Part shown: in pieces, positions 4,130-42,062 of the stretch | Layout of the letters: each line of letters starts with the position of its first letter | How positions within the stretch are numbered: position 1 is the first letter of the stretch | Assembly: GCA_963575745.1 (NCBI GenBank) | Contig: CAUYUJ010019348.1 | Span: 729,333 to 793,332, forward strand | From: Prorocentrum cordatum | Taxonomy: Eukaryota > Sar > Dinophyceae > Prorocentrales > Prorocentraceae | DNA: 64,000 nt | Direction: 5' to 3' | Program-made: the position numbers and the translations under genes | The notes under the pieces: model-generated | What the model was told of the DNA's origin: nothing | What the model saw: only the letters and a program-made list of their open reading frames with translations | The model's database searches: none

Positions 4130-4740
4130 GGGGGTGCGGACAGAGGTGGGGACGGTGTTGGTGGGACAGTGGTGAGGGGACAGCGGGACAGTGGTGGGGA
4201 CAGTGGGACAGTGGGACAGTAGAGGGCCGGTAGTGGTGGGGACAGTGGTGAGGACAATGGTGGGAACAGGGGGGACAGTGGACAGTGGTGGGGACGGTGG
4301 TGGTGGTGACAGTGGTGTGGGCACAGTGGGAATGAGGTGGAAACAATGGGACAGTGGAGGGTACAATGGTGGTGGGGACAGTGGTGAAGGCGGTGGCGAG
4401 GACGGCGGTGGGACAATGGGACAGAGGTACAGTGGGGACAGTGGTGGGGACAGTGGTGGTGGGAACAGTGGGACAGCTCAGTGGGACAGCGGCGGAGTCA
4501 GTGGGACAGTGGGGACAGTGGGGATAGTCGGGCAGTGGTTGGGGCCGTGGAGACAGTGGGGAGAGTGGAACCGTGGTGGGAACAGTGGCGGGGACAGTGG
4601 GGACAGTGCGACAGTGGTGGGGGCACTGGTGGGGACACAGTGGGGACAGTGGTGGTGAGGACAGTGGTGCTGGGAACAACAGTGGAGGATGTGATGCGGA
4701 CGGTGGTAGGGACCGGGAGTCGTTTGCTGGCGGTGAGTGG
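4130..4740 (+). repeat. GACAGTGG(T)GGG minisatellite
   Basis: About 600 bp of degenerate 8-14 bp units around GGGGACAGTGGTG. The G-rich strand is plus. Long Gly/Asp/Ser or Pro/His/Thr frames here come from the repeat. Confidence 0.9.
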
Positions 4741-31982: not shown

Positions 31983-32023
31983 ATCCTCCTCCTCCTCCTC
32001 CTCCTCCTCCTCCTCCTCCTCCT
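31983..32023 (+). repeat. (CTC)n abutting the assembly gap
   Basis: Pure CTC triplets run into the gap. The same microsatellite borders the other end of the LINE (35943 onward). Confidence 0.95.
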
Positions 32024-32123
32024 NNNNNNNNNNNNNNNNNNNNNNNNNNNNNNNNNNNNNNNNNNNNNNNNNNNNNNNNNNNNNNNNNNNNNNNNNNNNN
32101 NNNNNNNNNNNNNNNNNNNNNNN
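32024..32123. other. assembly gap (100 N)
   Basis: Exactly 100 N, the usual placeholder for a gap of unknown size. The 3' end of the LINE probably lies in or beside it. Confidence 0.99.
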
Positions 32124-34430
32124 GCGCGCGTGCACCTGGAAATCTCCCGAACCTTCTCGGGGCAGATGGGTGGGGGGTGGCGATTGCATTCGTCATTCGG
32201 GAAAAAAGCATGGACTGTGACTATGAGAGAGGACCGAGAGGGAGTCACGAGACCAAGGCGAGCGATCGGACAGGGATGGGCAGGGGCGGAGCAGACGCAC
32301 GAGAGCGCGCGGAGAAAGTGCGGGCAGTTCCACAGATGCCTGAAGCTGCAGACTTCCCCGCACCCGAAATGACAAATTCGATTCTCTTGAGCCGCCGATG
32401 CAGTGACCCACCCCCCGCATAAAACTTTACTTACAGCGGTGCGCCAAGCCGGAGGAAGGAGGAGGGCCTGGGTTCGCACCTCACTCCGCGCGATCGAGCG
32501 AATCTGCAGTTCGAGCCGAGGGAACCAGGACAACGGACGCTTCTGGAAGAGAGCCTCGAGCTGGTCTGGGAGGGTCAGGGCGGCGAGGTGGCGGAGAAGA
32601 ACACGTTGAGGGTGAAGAGCTTTGAGAGGGAGAAGAGGACGGGATGCTCGGAATTCTTGAGCGTGCCGAACGCTCGACGAATAGCAACCGGATCCTGCAG
32701 CAGCCTCCGTCAAATTCGCGGCGAAGGCGGGGGGCCCCCAGAAGCGCGGCCATGGGGGGCCCACTCACAGCACGGACTATTGAGTGATGCTCGATACAGG
32801 TATCATATAACTCTGAATAGGCCTGCTGCCAACTGGAGAACGTGACAAGGCTCGCCCTCATCAACTGGGCGATTATCAACATTTTCACGCTATGCACACG
32901 CGCCCCCCCTCCCCCCTTCCGCGAGGCAACAGAAGGGAAGGTTAAATATGCTGGAGAGGTATCGCGTTTCTGGAGGGAGGCTGGAAGGGTTTGGGATTGG
33001 CCGACATATGAGAGGACGGAGAGAACCCTGGAGCAATAGAGCGCGGCCGAGACAGAAGCAGCAGCGCGTCGCCGAGAAAGCTCACGGGAGCGGGCAACAT
33101 ATTCTCCGGAGGGTTTAGCCCACGAGGTGTAGGGGGTGACTCCAGGACCAATCCAAACCCCCATATAGAGGACCGAGGGTGCGATCGCGAAGTCGGCCCA
33201 CTCGGGCACGCTCCGCTTGAGATGCATGCGGTAGAGGGCCTCCAGCGCCTCCGTGAACGAGCCGAGCAGCGGGGCAATTTTACATTTGGCTTTTTCCAAC
33301 TGGAGGTGGGCGAGGTTGGGGGCGTCAGCGAAGACAAGGTAAACCCAGTAGAGGTCAACCGTACAGTAAAGAACGGCTCCCACATCGTCCGCGCACGCTC
33401 TGGCAAGTCCCCGAGGCACAGCGGGCCCCTCGAGCACAGAGGCAAGCTTGATCAAAAAAAGGGTCGGCACCTACAGCGTAGAGCGAGCCGCTAGCTGGGG
33501 GGGGGGCCCCTGAAATATCCAGCTGGCGATCCAAAACATCAGTCCAAGCTCCCCCCCGACACAACCCGGGCACGTCACATCCCAGTAGAGGTGACAAACC
33601 AGCGCGAGAAAAGGGGGCAGGAGGACGGATCCGTTTCAAAGTCTGGATCATCCAGCGCTGCGGCATGGAAGGGGAAGCTTGACCATAGTCCAAGCTGATC
33701 AGAAGCGGGCAACGCCTTTCGGCCATGGGCGTCATGCTCGTGATTCGGCTCACAGCGTCCAACTCAATAATATTATCCCCGAAATTCCGCGTCGGAGCGA
33801 ACCCCTTTGGGATCTCTGGGGGCCAGGGGGGGGGGGCATGGGTGAGGGCTCGGATCGCCATGGACGTAATGCTTGTATCGTCGCAATTTTCAAGCCCCAA
33901 AAAGCGGTGTCTCCTGGGGATCTTATAACTCCAGTCCTGGTCGTCGGGCGTCTCGGATTCCGGGATGAAGACGCCCGAGATGGCATTGAACTCGGGCAGC
34001 AGATAGTTGCCCGCGAAAATCCACTGCATGCATCCCATGGGAGATCCACTCCTGCAGGTGCGTGTTGCCAAGCCTCATGCGGAATCCTGTCGGGGCCTGG
34101 GGCGCTATGTTGGGGTTTTCGGACCAGGGAACAAAGCTGGGGAAAGGTCGGGGGGGGGGGGGGGGGGCTGCCGAGGCTGTGAACTTCGGGAAGAGCGCGA
34201 CAACTCCGCCTCTGGGATGGGCAGGGGAATCGCCGGCACTGGGAGAAGCAAAAGAGAAGGAGGCACTAGACGGGAGGTGGGGGTGGTGGAGTAGATCATT
34301 CAGCTCAGGCTCAGACCCGCGGGCATCTTGCGAGGTCCGACGGAGGAATCTGACTTTCCTCGCGCGGGTGGCAGCGTCATAATGAAGAAGAGCTCTGGCG
34401 TTCCACGCCACAATTCTGAACGCGGAGGCA
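32124..34430 (-). pseudogene. LINE ORF2: endonuclease, reverse transcriptase, Cys/His motif (decayed)
   Basis: ORF2 normally nicks target DNA and copies the element RNA. The start FRIVAWNARALLHYDAATRA (about 34420) matches the first strand of an exonuclease-endonuclease-phosphatase fold, but the expected Q-E strand is missing and the frame soon resumes at GGVVALFPKF, implying a deletion. Reverse transcriptase landmarks: FAPTRNFGDNIIELDA, motif A LLISLDYGQASPSM (Asp at about 33690), motif B SGSLYAVGADPFF (about 33492), motif C CADDVGAVL (about 33392, both Asp kept). A zinc-type motif C-x3-C-x3-C-x3-H-x3-C lies at 32374-32324 (CHFGCGEVCSFRHLWNC). Three frames are needed to read through. Confidence 0.82.
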
Positions 34431-35715
34431 GAGGGGGAGAACGGGGCGGAGGAACCGTGCCACAGGGCACTCAGTGCACTTGGAACTCCACACTGTTGGA
34501 CTTGGCCCCGCGATCGCCTGCTGCGCGATCGGCCCCAGCTCGGATTGCGACAGCCCCTCAGCCACAATGTTGGCGGGGGCCCAGGCAATCTCAGGCGTGC
34601 CACTCTGCGGGACTGGCTTGATTTGGATAAGTGGCCTCCAATTCGATGAAATCTCACCCTTGGCCATGTCGGTGAAAAAAGCGACGCCCAGGATGCGCTT
34701 CTTGAAGAGCACGACGAATGGACCTGCAAGCCGCCTCACGGCAGATGGTGCACATGCTCTTGTCGGGTCCGACGAAGATGTTCGTCTGCTCACCCGTCGT
34801 GGACTTGATCTTGAACTCTCGGTACATGTGGCCCGCGCCTCCACCTGGGCGTGGGACCTTGAGATGGCCGGGGGCCTGTGCCGCGCGCTTTGTCGCAAGC
34901 GCCTCCGTGCCGTTGAACATGATAACGTACTTCTTGCTCGTGGGTTCGCCCTGCACGACCCACTCGTTGCTTGAAACATATGAATATTCCAACCACCCTC
35001 GAACCGATCCTGAGACGGCTGTCGCAGTAACCAATTCTCTAGATCGTACCACCACGATACTTGCATCAATGTTTCTGTCGAAATTCGCATTGGATGGCTC
35101 GAACTGCTTGAGCGGCGGAGGGTGTTTCTTGATGATACCGAGCTCAGCCCGCAGCTCACGCATCTCTTTCTCCACCTGCGACAGACGGGTATCCTGCGCT
35201 TTCTGAGTGTGCTCCACAATGTTGATCCTGGTCTCCATGTGCTTGTGGAGCTCGGTGTATGATCTGGACAGGGTTGCCTTGAGAGAGGCCATAGATTAGT
35301 TGATACTTGCCATGTTTGAGGATACCCCGTCTGCAACTGCCGAAACACTGTCGAGCACGTGCTTGAGGCTGCCGTCGACCTGACCCTTGAAAGATTGGAA
35401 CTCGTCTCGCAGACCAGCAAAGGAATACAACACAATAGGAGCAGAATCCCGCGGCGTTGGCAGAGGCGTCGATATGTCGACCATCTCTTTCCCACCACTT
35501 CGTGTACGAAGGCTGCGGCTGCCACGACCATCATCTTCGTCACGACGGCTAGCATCACGATGCACGGGTCCAGTACCTTCTTGAAAGGGGAAAGTGGGAG
35601 CAGTCTCGAAGTCTCGGATGTCCTGCGAGCTGAGGACCTGGGCGCGCTGGGGCGCGTCCACCATCGCCGCGCCCTTGCCAGGGAGCACGGGCTGACCATT
35701 TCCCTTGCCAAGCAT
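34377..35715 (-). pseudogene. LINE ORF1 (RNA-binding/Gag-like protein), broken
   Basis: ORF1 proteins bind element RNA. The start chosen is the ATG at 35715-35713 (MLGKGNGQPVLPGKG), about 205 bases after the spliced leader. The N-terminal region ends in a helix with DEFQSFKGQVDGSLKHVLDS; an in-frame TAA follows at 35298-35296. The frame then resumes (MASLKATLSRSYTELHKHME), with a coiled-coil-like heptad region and a globular segment (KYVIMFNGTEALATKRAAQA). Near 34672 the run of T in GGCGTCGCTTTTTT shifts the frame: RRFF is followed in the next frame by TDMAKGEISSNWRPLIQIKP, which continues to the stop at 34377. Stop plus shift show a dead copy, unless either is an assembly error. Confidence 0.7.
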
Positions 35716-35920
35716 CTCCGCCACAGGACGGGCACCCACGAGATGCGACTGGCGCCCGCAAGGGGCATGACAGCGGTTCGTGAAACGCGAGGAGGGGCGG
35801 TGGACAGAGAAAGAATTGCTCCCACAGGAGCTCACACAAAAACACCGTGGGCGAGGCAGTGGCGCCTTCCTACCCACCACGCAAAGGCTGTCCTGGCCAG
35901 CTGCCTTGACGAGATGGCAG

Positions 35921-35942
35921 TTTGAGCCAAAATGGCTACGGA
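35921..35942 (-). other. dinoflagellate spliced-leader relic
   Basis: On the minus strand the sequence is T followed by CCGTAGCCATTTTGGCTCAA and then A. The dinoflagellate SL is 22 nt, D-CCGUAGCCAUUUUGGCUCAA-G; only the last base differs. Upstream on the minus strand is pure (GAG)n, with no SL RNA gene context (no donor GT after the SL, since AACTGCC follows). It is therefore a genomic relic of trans-splicing carried in by retrotransposition. Confidence 0.93.
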
Positions 35943-36245
35943 CCTCCTCCTCCTCCTCCTCCTCCTCCTCCTCTTCCTCCTCCTCCTCCTCCTCCTCCTC
36001 CTCCTCCTCCTCCTCCTCCTCCTCCTCCTCTCTCCTCTCTCCTCTCGTCTCTCTCCTCTCTCCTCTGTCCTCTCTCCTCTCTCCTCTCTCCTCTAACCCC
36101 TCCTCCTCCTCCTTCTCCTCCTCCTCCTCCTCTTCCTCCTCTTCCTCCTCCTCTTTCTCCTCCTTATCCTCCCCTTCCTCCTCCTCATCCACCTCCTCCT
36201 CATAGTATTCCTCGTATTCCTCTTATTCGTCTGTTTCTTCTTCAT
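35943..36245 (+). repeat. (CTC)n microsatellite with CTCTC interruptions
   Basis: Pure CTC at 35943-36030, then CTCTCCT and CTCTGTC variants and CTC/TTC to 36245. It directly borders the LINE 5' end. Poly-Glu and poly-Pro frames here are artefacts. Confidence 0.95.
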
Positions 36246-38540: not shown

Positions 38541-41500
38541 CCGCCGACCCCTTGGGGATCATCGGCGTGTGAGATGCTTCCCCCTCCCCAAACCCCTCCC
38601 CCGGGAGCCTGGTCGGGTCGATTTGGAGGGGGGGGGGGTCCGGGACGAGCGATCCACGGGGCTTTTCCTGGCCCAAGAGGGCCTCCAGACGGGCCACGAA
38701 GCCCCCAAGAGGCTTCCAAGACGGCCCACGAAGGCTCCGAGACGCCAAACGACCGCTCCAAGACGCCCACGATGGCCCCAAGACGGGCCAAGAGGTCTCC
38801 AAGACGGCTTGAGGTCCCAAATGAGCTTCCCAAGAGGGCCCAAAGAGTCTAAAATTGCTGATTTTCCAGAGTGTTTTTCGATGTTTTTTCCTGTTCCGCC
38901 TTTCCGGCTTCCCGACGCTCCAAGACGCGCGACGAGGCCCCAAAGATAGCCCCAAGATGGCCCAAGAGTCCCCCAAGATGGCCTCCAGACGGCCCAAGAC
39001 GGCCCCAAGACGGCCCAAGAGGTCCCCAAGACGGCCCAAGAGGGCCGATTTGAAGGGGGGGGGGTCCGGGACGAGCGATCCACGGGGCTTTTCCTGGCCC
39101 AAGAGGGCCTCAAGACGGGCCACGAAGCCCCCAAGAGGCTTCCAAGACGGCCCACGAAGGCTCCGAGACGCCAAACGACCGCTCCAAGACGCCCACGATG
39201 GCCCCAAGACGGTCCAAGAGGTCTCCAAGACGGCCTTGAGGTCCCAAATGAGCTTCCCAAGAAGGCCCAAAGAGTCTAAAATTGCTGATTTTCCAGAGTG
39301 TTTTTCGATGTTTTTTGCTTTTCCGCCTTTCCGGCTTCCCGACGCTCCAAGACGCGCGAAGAGGCCCCAAAGATAGCCCCAAGATGGCCCAAGACTCCCC
39401 CAAGACGGCCTCCAGACGGCCCAAGACGGCCCCAAGACGGCCCAAGAGGTCCCCAAGACGGCCCAAGAGGGCCGATTTGGAGGGGGGGGGGGTCCGGGAC
39501 GAGCGATCCACGGAGCTTTTCCTGGCCCAAGAGGGCCTCAAGACGGGCCACGAAGCCCCCAAGAGGCTTCCAAGACGGCCCACGAAGGCTCCGAGACGCC
39601 AAACGACCGCTCCAAGACGCCCACGATGGCCCCAAGACGGGCCAAGAGGTCTCCAAGACGGCCTTGAGGTCCCAAATGAGCTTCCCAAGAAGGCCCAAAG
39701 AGTCTAAATTGCTGATTTTCCAGAGTGTTTTTCGATGTTTTTTCTTTTCCGCCTTTCCGGCTTCCCGACGCTCCAAGACGCGCGAAGAGGCCCCAAAGAT
39801 AGCCCCAAGATGGCCCAAGAGTCCCCCAAGACGGCCTCCAGACGGCCCAAGACGGCCCCAAGACGGCCCAAGAGGTCCCCAAGACGGCCCAAGAGGGCCG
39901 ATTTGGAGGGGGGGAGGGGTCCGGGACGAGCGATCCACGGGGCTTTTCCTGGCCCAAGAGGGCCTCAAGACGGGCCACGAAGCCCCCAAGAGGCCTCCAA
40001 GACGGCCCACGAAGGCTCCGAGACGCCAAACGACCGCTCCAAGACGCCCACGATGGCCCCAAGACGGGCCAAGAGGTCTCCAAGACAGCCTTGAGGTCCC
40101 AAATGAGCTTCCCAAGAGGGCCCAAAGAGTCTAAAATTGCTGATTTTCCAAAGTGTTTTTCGATGTTTTTTGCTTTTCCGCCTTTCCGGCTTCCCGACGC
40201 TCCAAAACAGGCAAAGAGGCCCCAAAGATAGCCCCAAGATGGCCCAAGAGTCCCCCAAGACGGCCTCCAGACGGCCCAAGACGGCCCCAAGACGGCCCAA
40301 GAGGTCACCAAAACGGCCCAAGAGGGCCGATTTGGAGGGGGGAGGGGGCCGGGACGAGCGATCCACGGGGCTTTTCCTGGCCCAAGAGGGCCTCAAGACG
40401 GGCCACGAAGCCCCCAAGAGGCTTCCAAGACGGCCCACGAAGGCTCCGAGACGCCAAACGACCGCTCCAAGACGCCCACGATGGCCCCAAGACGGGCCAA
40501 GAGGTCTCCAAGACGGCTTGAGGTCCCAAATGAGCTTCCCAAGAGGGCCCAAAGAGTCTAAAATTGCTGATTTTCCATAGTGTTTTTCGATGTTTTTTCC
40601 TGTTCCGCCTTTCCGGCTTCCCGACGCTCCAAGACGCGCGACGAGGCCCCAAAGATAGCCCCAAGATGGCCCAAGAGTCCCCCAAGATGGCCTCCAGACG
40701 GCCCAAGACGGCCCCAAGACGGCCCAAGAGGTCCCCAAGACGGCCCAAGAGGGCCGATTTGAAGGGGGGGGGGGTCCGGGACGAGCGATCCACGGGGCTT
40801 TTCCTGGCCCAAGAGGGCCTCAAGACGGGCCACGAAGCCCCCAAGAGGCTTCCAAGACGGCCCACGAAGGCTCCGAGACGCCAAACGACCGCTCCAAGAC
40901 GCCCACGATGGCCCCAAGACGGTCCAAGAGGTCTCCAAGACGGCCTTGAGGTCCCAAATGAGCTTCCCAAGAAGGCCCAAAGAGTCTAAAATTGCTGATT
41001 TTCCAAAGTGTTTTTATGTTTTTTGCTTTTCCGCCTTTCCGGCTTCCCGACGCTCCAAGACGCGCGAAGAGGCCCCAAAGATAGCCCCAAGATGGCCCAA
41101 GACTCCCCCAAGACGGCCTCCAGACGGCCCAAGACGGCCCCAAGACGGCCCAAGAGGTCCCCAAGACGGCCCAAGAGGGCCGATTTGGAGGGGGGGGGGT
41201 CCGGGACGAGCGATCCACGGAGCTTTTCCTGGCCCAAGAGGGCCTCAAGACGGGCCACGAAGCCCCCAAGAGGCTTCCAAGACGGCCCACGAAGGCTCCG
41301 AGACGCCAAACGACCGCTCCAAGACGCCCACGATGGCCCCAAGACGGGCCAAGAGGTCTCCAAGACGGCCTTGAGGTCCCAAATGAGCTTCCCAAGAAGG
41401 CCCAAAGAGTCTAAAATTGCTGATTTTCCAAAGTGTTTTTCGATGTTTTTTCCTTTTCCGCCTTTCCGGCTTCCCGACGCTCCAAGACGCGCGAAGAGGC

Positions 41501-42062
41501 CCCAAAGATAGCCCCAAGATGGCCCAAGAGTCCCCCAAGACGGCCTCCAGACAGCCCAAGACGGCCCCAAGACGGCCCAAGAGGTCCCCAAGACGGCCCA
41601 AGAGAGCCGATTTGGAGGTGGGGAGGGGTCCGGGACGAGCGATCCACGGGGCTTTTCCTGGCCCAAGAGGGCCTCAAGACGGGCCACGAAGCCCCCAAGA
41701 GGCCTCCAAGACGGCCCACGAAGGCTCCGAGACGCCAAACGACCGCTCCAAGACGCCCACGATGGCCCCAAGACGGGCCAAGAGGTCTCCAAGACGGGAG
41801 GTCCCAAACAAGAGGGCCCCAAGAGTCTACAATTGTTGATTTTCCATGGTGTTTCTCGATGTTTTTTGCTTTTCCGCCTTTTCGGCTTCCCGACGCTCCA
41901 AGACGGCCAAAGAGGCCCCATAGACAGCCCCAAGATGGCCCAAGAGGCCCCCAAGACGGCCTCCAGACGGCCCACGACGGCCCCAACACGGCCCAAGAGG
42001 TCCCCAAGACGGCCCAAGAAGGCTCCAAGACGGCACCAATAGGGGCCCAAGAGGGCGACCAA
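38540..42062. repeat. satellite array, period about 427 bp, about eight units
   Basis: The landmark AAAATTGCTGATTTTCC recurs at about 38851, 39278, 39705, 40133, 40560, 40988, 41413 and (changed) 41829, giving spacings of 427, 427, 428, 427, 428, 425 and 416. Each unit holds a G-run followed by TCCGGGACGAGCGATCCACG, a block of CCAAGACGGCC-type 10-12 bp subrepeats, and TTCCGCCTTTCCGGCTTCCC. Adjacent units are about 95 percent identical by eye; the last is shorter and more diverged. Long Trp/Gly/Leu frames on the minus strand are repeat artefacts. Confidence 0.97.

What the first reader, a model, noticed from the sequence alone, without database searches (positions are those of the whole stretch)
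35921..35942. LINE copy begins with a trans-spliced leader
The 5' end of the LINE (minus strand) is a 21/22 match to the dinoflagellate spliced leader, about 205 nt before ORF1 and directly joined to (GAG)n. This means the RNA template of the inserted copy had been trans-spliced, and reverse transcription ran to the very end of the mRNA, so the insertion is 5'-complete. If general, SL addition would supply LINE mRNAs with a cap and 5' end without a standard internal promoter at that end. SL relics are known for processed host genes in dinoflagellates; a LINE whose full-length copies carry the SL is less often noted.
Basis: partly seen in the sequence, partly recalled or inferred. Interest (0 to 1): 0.9.

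Follow-up and report, generated by a model that had tools for sequence, protein, structure and literature searches.

The report
Jumping gene headed by spliced leader
In a dinoflagellate alga, nearly every inspected copy of a group of self-copying DNA elements (LINEs) begins with the short leader that the cell splices onto its messenger RNAs, often stacked two to four times, which suggests that the elements borrow their front end from the host afresh in each round of copying.

Summary
Confirmed and extended. Window 35921-35942 (minus) matches the dinoflagellate spliced leader (SL) at 21/22, joined to (GGA)n, 205 nt before the first in-frame ATG of a decayed LINE. An SL-free 5'-UTR pattern finds 217 places; of 76 read, 75 begin with the SL (one is truncated). 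Of 68 independent copies, 35 carry two or more SL cores; 38 of 39 steps are 15 nt (...CAAG|CCATTTTGG...), the register expected if the older SL's own AG served as the next trans-splice acceptor. Tandem pairs number 5,177 genome-wide, control 0. No shared LINE 5' extension was found upstream; one copy has an 18-nt target-site duplication ending 3 nt before CCGTAG. Unexpectedly, 56 of 70 flanks are trinucleotide microsatellites, and related copies tend to share the same one. Most likely these LINEs replicate through trans-spliced RNA and inherit the relic SL as a portable acceptor. SL relics on retrogenes are known; as a systematic LINE 5' end I did not find it in print. No RNA was examined; promoter use is untested, and RT was shown for only three copies.

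The parts
35943..36201 (.). 5' flank: imperfect (GGA)n on the LINE strand, joined directly to the SL
   Evidence: tandem repeat; read
35921..35942 (-). DNA-encoded spliced leader, 21/22, full length including the first (D) position
35716..35920 (-). 5' UTR of the LINE; its first 15 nt may be an older decayed SL relic (inference); 35887-35905 is the family module used for the SL-independent search
   Evidence: single-copy relic test not significant (p about 0.07)
34741..35715 (-). ORF1-like frame (325 codons, one TAA at codon 140), continuing in another frame towards 34441
   Evidence: no convincing family hit and no protein relative; 88% identical reading over 213 residues in copy L086
34106..34441 (-). 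Start of ORF2, resembling an APE-type endonuclease N-terminus (FRIVAWNARALLH..., recognised from memory), interrupted by a ~1.26-kb internal deletion near 34167
   Evidence: deletion from comparison with the C13653 copy
32808..34127 (-). Reverse transcriptase region (APGPD ... ACADD motifs), broken by frame changes
   Evidence: tblastn of P0002 on the raw window
32312..32374 (-). C-terminal Cys/His motif CHFGCGEVCSFRHLWNCPHFL, taken as counterpart of CLFGC...CCP in P0002 (compared by eye beyond the aligned CxFGC)
32024..32123 (.). 100-N assembly gap that hides the last ~67 nt of the element and its 3' junction (length taken from the C13653 copy)
31984..32023 (.). 3' flank: (GGA)n on the same strand as the 5' flank

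Best explanation
This is a non-LTR retrotransposon (LINE) whose replicating RNA is trans-spliced by the host. Shown by the DNA: nearly all copies read begin at the SL; about half carry two to four SL units, almost always at 15-nt steps; no shared LINE sequence lies upstream; most sit at trinucleotide microsatellites; and the window's own relatives end at a fixed 3' terminus (...GCTACGCTCGA) without a poly(A) tail. Inferred: RNA that reads into a copy from flanking DNA is trans-spliced, receiving SL and cap; the endonuclease/RT then inserts it by target-primed reverse transcription and copies to the cap-proximal nucleotide. A new copy has no upstream sequence of its own, so its next RNA must take an acceptor at or in the relic SL: the internal GTAG|CC adds a 15-nt unit, the terminal CAAG| would renew the SL without a scar. 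The relic SL is thus a portable trans-splice acceptor.
For: SL at the 5' end of 75 of 76 places read (of 100 listed, 217 in all; reversed-pattern control 3) found by an SL-independent pattern. Of 68 independent copies, 35 have two or more SL cores; with any distance of 9 nt or more allowed, 38 of 39 neighbour distances are 15 nt and one is 27 (L060). Counting ungapped 15-nt steps only: 31 with 2 units, 2 with 3, 1 with 4. In the outer unit the internal AG is kept in 61 and the terminal AG in 61 of 66 ungapped copies. 5,177 tandem 30-mers (up to 3 mismatches), control 0. C13653 copy: 18-nt duplication (17/18), 5' arm ending 3 nt before CCGTAG, 3' arm directly after the 3' terminus; its distinctive 15-mer occurs with up to 1 mismatch at those two sites only in 770,804 bases of the window and held loci, both strands. 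Same 3' terminus in 6 of 6 readable copies, no poly(A). RT in the window copy, the C13653 copy and an (ATC)n-type copy headed by SL.
Against: No transcript was examined. L016 lacks the SL, and L018 has the SL on another UTR. 14 of 70 flanks fit none of the four microsatellite classes, and at the looser threshold the cluster of the window's own UTR variant is mixed: GGA 4, GAT 1, other 5. One readable target-site duplication only; by alignment score alone it (31) barely exceeds GGA-rich windows nearby (28-29). The UTR module heads elements with different ORF1s (P0001 similarity in 2 of 68), so most copies in the tally are not proven to encode an RT. Two of the eight partial upstream similarities reach close to the SL in one partner (L054/L063, L103/L109).
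Confidence: 0.88

Rival explanations
1. The SL was captured once and is now an ordinary part of the LINE's DNA 5' end, copied along by transcription from an upstream promoter; no new trans-splicing happens per cycle.
For: A single unit in 32 of 66 ungapped copies (one of them, L060, has further gapped units) is also what passive inheritance would give; the 110-nt stretch behind it is conserved across subfamilies.
Against: 35 of 68 copies carry two or more cores, 38 of 39 steps being 15 nt in the register of the internal AG, which passive copying does not produce; single and double forms occur in front of the same UTR variant (L062 and L055); the outer SL keeps CCGTAG with at most one mismatch in 65 of 66 ungapped copies.
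Confidence: 0.07
2. SLACS/CZAR-like element: the LINE inserts into SL RNA genes, so the SL is target sequence, not RNA-derived.
For: Such LINEs exist in trypanosomatids (PMC2696322 passages).
Against: In the window copy no SL-intron donor follows the SL, and neither flank resembles an SL RNA gene-like sequence from another organism (L003; p 0.30 and 0.95); upstream are microsatellites in 56 of 70 copies; tandem units and the duplication outside the SL do not fit.
Confidence: 0.01
3. The 205 nt behind the SL are a host exon: a LINE captured in a host transcript, a one-off.
For: One copy alone could not exclude it.
Against: Four other copies match the window across UTR and ORF1 start (84-96% over 409-438 of 443 nt; one of them, L016, without the SL), and about the first 110-120 nt recur in many diverged copies.
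Confidence: 0.01
4. Chance match or assembly artefact.
For: The genome is repeat-rich, has about one SL-like site per 86 kb (48,069 places), and a gap lies at this copy's 3' end.
Against: 75 of 76 places read; 18-nt duplication around an SL-headed copy.
Confidence: 0.01
5. Microsatellite flanks reflect assembly or survival bias rather than target choice.
For: Trinucleotide repeats cover 3.7% of the window, and insertions there may be tolerated best; 14 of 70 flanks are unclassified.
Against: Strong 3-periodicity in 43 of 67 flanks versus 4.4% of 1,965 control windows; close relatives share the same repeat: nearest neighbour agrees in 48 of 55, permutation mean 22.2, maximum 37 of 2,000.
Confidence: 0.15

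Closest known systems
DinoSL-tagged retrogenes of dinoflagellates (DinoSL plus DinoRL tandems; reviewed in PMC6050394, surveyed in PMC12014239)
   Same: SL relic in DNA at the 5' end; tandem relics of the form CCATTTTGGCTCAAG
   Different: Here the template is the retrotransposon itself, in nearly every copy read, so that the relic becomes part of the element's replication cycle
Trypanosomatid LINEs L1Tc/ingi with Pr77 (PMC8190864, passages)
   Same: LINEs in a host that trans-splices its mRNAs
   Different: Those carry an internal 5' promoter and make unspliced transcripts; here the 5' terminus is the SL
SLACS/CZAR/CRE (PMC2696322 and PMC4640811, passages)
   Same: Non-LTR elements physically linked to spliced-leader sequence
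   Different: They insert into SL exons or arrays; here the SL appears to come from the RNA template and the targets are mostly microsatellites
Microsatellite-specific non-LTR elements such as Togen in (TG)n and some HERO families (PMC4640811 passages)
   Same: Insertion into simple repeats
   Different: Trinucleotide targets that differ between related groups, and an SL-derived 5' end; clade membership not tested

Membership tests
Dinoflagellate spliced leader | 22-nt DCCGTAGCCATTTTGGCTCAAG | tested here: met
   21/22 in the window; 0-1 mismatch in CCGTAG in 65 of 66 ungapped copies
SL-tagged retrocopy | SL or tandem relics at the 5' end of an inserted copy, no common homology upstream | tested here: met
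   exception L016 without SL
SL-tagged retrocopy | Target-site duplication around the SL-headed copy | tested here: met
   18 nt, 17/18, in one copy; in the four other copies with both ends held none could be read, the flanks being simple repeats (three compared) or the SL missing (L016)
Non-LTR retrotransposon (LINE) | LINE-type reverse transcriptase | tested here: met
   P0002 (PF00078) vs raw window E 1.4e-21, C13653 copy 1.3e-52, (ATC)n copy 4.8e-54; no P0002 match in the TCC-type copy on C3838
Non-LTR retrotransposon (LINE) | Endonuclease domain (APE or RLE) | tested here: inconclusive
   APE-like start recognised from memory only; no Pfam hit
Non-LTR retrotransposon (LINE) | No LTRs; defined 3' end | tested here: met
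   no direct repeat of the ends by self-comparison of the window copy; same 3' terminus in 6 of 6 readable copies
SLACS/CZAR/CRE | Insertion inside an SL RNA gene exon | tested here: not met
L1Tc/ingi-type LINE | Unspliced transcripts from an internal 5' promoter | not testable with these tools
   no RNA data; the DNA 5' end is the SL, which argues against unspliced templates
Microsatellite-targeted LINE | Both flanks in the same simple repeat | tested here: met
   window copy (GGA)n both sides (gap between element and 3' repeat); C3391, C16989, C17654 (GGA)n both sides; C1790 (ATC)n both sides. C13653 lies in a mixed GAT/GGA stretch

The most novel reading that the evidence does not exclude
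A clade of LINEs has given up an own 5' end and promoter: the host SL is renewed at each cycle, the relic SL is inherited as the element's trans-splice acceptor, and stacked relics partly record past rounds. Subfamilies are confined to different trinucleotide microsatellites, and the same machinery may make the bulk of the ~48,000 SL insertions of this genome, host retrogenes included.
Probability: 0.4. Interest if true: 0.9.

Novelty: new variant of a known kind. Interest (0 to 1): 0.8.

Why it matters
LINEs must solve the problem of keeping their 5' end and promoter when each new copy starts at the end of the RNA; a common answer is an internal promoter. These elements appear to outsource it to trans-splicing and to carry the acceptor inside the very leader they receive. 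That would explain how full-length copies stay competent in a host whose mRNAs receive an SL, make insertion history partly readable from stacked leaders, and offer a candidate machine, with a visible target preference, for the flood of retrogenes in dinoflagellates. The RNA steps are directly testable with SL-selected long-read cDNA.

Tried and rejected
Rejected: chance, assembly artefact, SL RNA gene insertion, host-exon capture (see rivals). A second, decayed relic in the window copy: p about 0.07, not claimed from that copy; other copies (L035 TTGCCATTTTGGCGAG; L074 and L111 with the SL abutting the module) suggest it, as inference. Ribozyme or known RNA at the 5' end: no Rfam family at gathering score in the window and one hit far below gathering score in 35600-36000, on the other strand. 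Pfam, NCBIfam and PDB gave nothing meaningful for the broken pieces (weak Pfam hits in the coiled-coil-like part of ORF1, all below the curated cut-offs). Protein searches with ORF1 and with the 329-aa RT fragment found nothing at E <= 0.001. Viral contigs gave no confirmed relative of P0001 or P0002. L004 is taken as a chance 18-mer. Counting problems: one search's automatic core count gave 0 units in three copies (L074 and L111, where the SL abuts the module, and L097 with a deletion) although the SL is readable; one search had an off-by-one start and was replaced; only admits 15-nt steps, so the step length was re-measured without that condition. One search counts L060 as one unit although further units are visible.

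Full report
Observation. On the minus strand, window 35942-35921 reads TCCGTAGCCATTTTGGCTCAAA, 21 of 22 positions of the dinoflagellate spliced leader; only the final G is an A. It is the only site with up to 3 mismatches to the 20-mer in the window, expected 0.01. Upstream it is joined to (GGA)n; downstream 205 nt lead to the ATG at 35715. The published SL formula was seen in PMC6050394 (first of three parts read).

The element. ORF1-like and ORF2-like frames follow. Curated libraries gave nothing convincing for the decayed pieces. A search with the read-through ORF2 found one protein at E <= 0.1 among 7,993 scored candidates: P0002, 870 aa, PF00078, E 2.9e-33. As a control that does not depend on the joining, P0002 hits the raw window in three collinear pieces (34127-34059, 33993-33454, 33602-32808; best E 1.4e-21; the next hits elsewhere have E >= 4.7). 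The copy is decayed: frames change several times, and about 1.26 kb present in the C13653 copy is missing near 34167.

After ten unanswered tries the whole genome could be searched: 4,128,499,153 bases in 21,875 contigs, the window being C18499:729333-793332. Size, the length of contig C1 (3,562,531) and the window's G+C (61%) come close to the Prorocentrum cordatum CCMP1329 assembly in PMC10666404 (4.15 Gb, 22,724 scaffolds, longest 3.56 Mb, 59.7% G+C; passages); the identification is mine. The SL 21-mer with up to 3 mismatches occurs 48,069 times against 121 for the reversed control, about one per 86 kb. The window's first 443 nt from the SL on find 40 copies (lower bound); in 30 loci read, window copy included, 29 have an SL at the 5' end; L016 has none, and L018 carries the SL on a different UTR.

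SL-independent survey. A 19-nt UTR pattern without SL (GGCAGCTGGCCAGGACAGC, up to 1 mismatch) occurs 217 times, control 3; 100 places were listed. All 70 have an SL immediately upstream (listing; outer SL with at most 4 edits in 70 of 70); of the six, five have it and L016 has not. Together 75 of 76.

Stacked leaders. Two pairs (L049/L087, L061/L067) are ~100% duplicates over 500 nt upstream; one of each was dropped, leaving 68. With any distance of 9 nt or more allowed between 15-nt SL cores, 35 of 68 copies have two or more, and 38 of 39 neighbour distances are exactly 15 nt; the other is 27, in L060. Counting only ungapped 15-nt steps: one unit in 32, two in 31, three in 2, four in 1, and two with a gapped single SL. 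The join is ...GGCTCAAG|CCATTTTGGCTCAAG, the register expected if a new SL was spliced to the AG inside the old one (CCGTAG|CC). In the outer unit the internal AG is intact in 61 and the terminal AG in 61 of the 66 ungapped copies. In the window copy the terminal AG is lost (AA) and the internal one kept. Genome-wide, the two-unit 30-mer with up to 3 mismatches occurs 5,177 times, control 0 (stacks of three or more count more than once). PMC12014239 (passages) reports the same relic form for retrogene transcripts and proposes a TG acceptor; the plain AG of CCGTAG fits the genomic register here.

Element boundaries. blastn (plus strand, low complexity masked) of the 500-nt upstream flanks found, besides the two duplicate pairs, eight partial similarities of 45-224 nt at 69-84% identity. 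They lie at differing distances from the SL; two reach close to it in one partner (L054/L063, L103/L109). I read them as other repeats, not as a shared LINE 5' extension. A 3'-end search found 7 copies; six are readable and all end in GCTACGCT(C/A)GA followed by GGA-rich or related repeats, without poly(A); the seventh is the window copy, whose end lies in the gap. The copy on C13653 (96% over its 5' 438 nt; 89-90% beyond) is flanked by GAGGATGGATG[T/C]GATCAT, 17 of 18 identical, above all 5,000 shuffles. GGA-rich windows nearby score almost as high (28-29 against 31), so the score alone is not decisive; but the distinctive 15-mer occurs with up to one mismatch at these two sites only among 770,804 bases (both strands of the window and all held loci). 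Three bases separate the 5' arm from CCGTAG. This places the 5' terminus of the inserted DNA at the SL to within those bases.

Targets. Flank class of the 70: GGA 32, TCC 16, ATC 5, GAT 3, other 14. Three-base periodicity of at least 0.7 in the 48 nt before the SL: 43 of 67 copies, against 4.4% of 1,965 control windows from the same loci. At the tighter threshold, the larger clusters by the 110 nt downstream hold: 10 of 10 GGA; 7 of 10 GGA; 6 of 7 TCC; 6 of 6 TCC; 5 of 5 ATC. Smaller clusters are uniform, mixed or unclassified, and at the looser threshold the cluster with the window's UTR variant is mixed (GGA 4, GAT 1, other 5). Nearest neighbours agree in 48 of 55 classified copies, permutation mean 22.2, maximum 37 of 2,000. 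Both flanks carry the same repeat in the window copy, in C3391, C16989 and C17654, and in an ATC-type copy on C1790, which encodes an RT related to P0002 (E 4.8e-54). In C16989 the SL-headed copy lies just behind what looks like another element's 3' end plus (GGA)n, a nested insertion. Of the first 8 exact SL sites on contig C1, 7 also abut TCC- or GGA-rich tracts; their downstream 1.5 kb show no similarity to P0001 or P0002, so what they are is open.

Limits. The shared UTR module heads elements with different ORF1s: P0001 similarity in 2 of 68. RT homology was shown for the window copy, the C13653 copy and the C1790 copy; a TCC-type copy (C3838) had no P0002 match but an open frame with RT-like motifs (recalled). 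Whether every surveyed copy is a complete LINE is therefore not shown. No transcript data were available; initiation, cap and promoter are inferred.

Mechanism. RNA reading into a copy from flanking DNA is trans-spliced; the acceptor lies at the element's edge, and after the first cycle the relic SL itself offers it. Use of the inner AG adds one 15-nt unit; use of the terminal AG would renew the SL invisibly, which would keep stacks short. Target-primed reverse transcription into a repeat, perhaps helped by pairing of the RNA's ...GCUCGAGG end with (CCT)n, copies the RNA to its first nucleotide. The DNA pattern is shown; the RNA and enzyme steps are inferred.

Literature. Searches (open-licence library only; supplements not read) and the passages read (PMC3942190, PMC12014239, PMC3229502, PMC5890265, PMC10235124, PMC7245778, PMC8110479, PMC8045281, PMC11453091, PMC10666404) describe SL relics on host retrogenes and near endogenised RNA-virus genes, and LINEs in dinoflagellates; none of the passages that I read describes LINE copies that begin with the SL. 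PMC8190864 (passages) gives the contrast: trypanosomatid LINEs with an internal promoter and unspliced transcripts. PMC4640811 (passages) gives precedents for microsatellite-specific non-LTR elements.

On re-reading the calls I added L016 and five other held places to the tally (75 of 76 instead of 70 of 70), the re-measured step length, the GGA background of the duplication score and the mixed cluster of the window's own variant.

Noticed in passing
L001 (IMGVR_UViG_3300045993_001077), minus strand 2766 to about 1780: A contig of about 17% GC that looks like a giant virus carries a 49% GC insert that starts with an exact SL, encodes a 254-aa Cys-rich frame and ends in GGGAAAAAATAAA: it looks like a host mRNA retro-inserted into a viral genome.
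   Followed up: partly
L001, minus strand 3040-2720: A second exact SL at 2913-2893; stretches of viral sequence near it and before the insert's SL are ~70-nt imperfect repeats.
   Followed up: partly
L003 (JAKUNN010000063.1), 4334-4354 minus: An SL RNA gene-like sequence (SL followed by GTACGC...) lies between 28S and 18S on a eukaryotic rDNA contig (18S and 5.8S complete, 28S cut by the contig ends) filed under a bacterial MAG.
   Followed up: partly
L002 (CAJXDJ010000191.1), 1-60: A contig with bacterial genes whose end is (TCA)n joined to a full SL, probably chimeric; again SL next to a trinucleotide repeat.
   Followed up: no
G000, 48,069 SL places; L005-L012: The genome holds an SL-like site about every 86 kb; 7 of 8 sampled sites abut TCC- or GGA-rich tracts, and what they head is unknown.
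   Followed up: partly
L052 (C2574): A copy with four stacked SL units joined directly to the module.
   Followed up: partly
window 38615-42023: 427-bp tandem repeat, 8 copies, 96% alike.
   Followed up: no
window, e.g. 19925, 31984, 35943, 37683, 43085, 44012, 56864, 59528, 60860: (TCC)n arrays between 19 and 61 kb nearly all lie on the plus strand, a strand bias without explanation.
   Followed up: no
first ~110 nt behind the SL in L043-L112: A conserved UTR stretch heads elements whose ORF1s differ: an exchanged or selected 5' module?
   Followed up: partly
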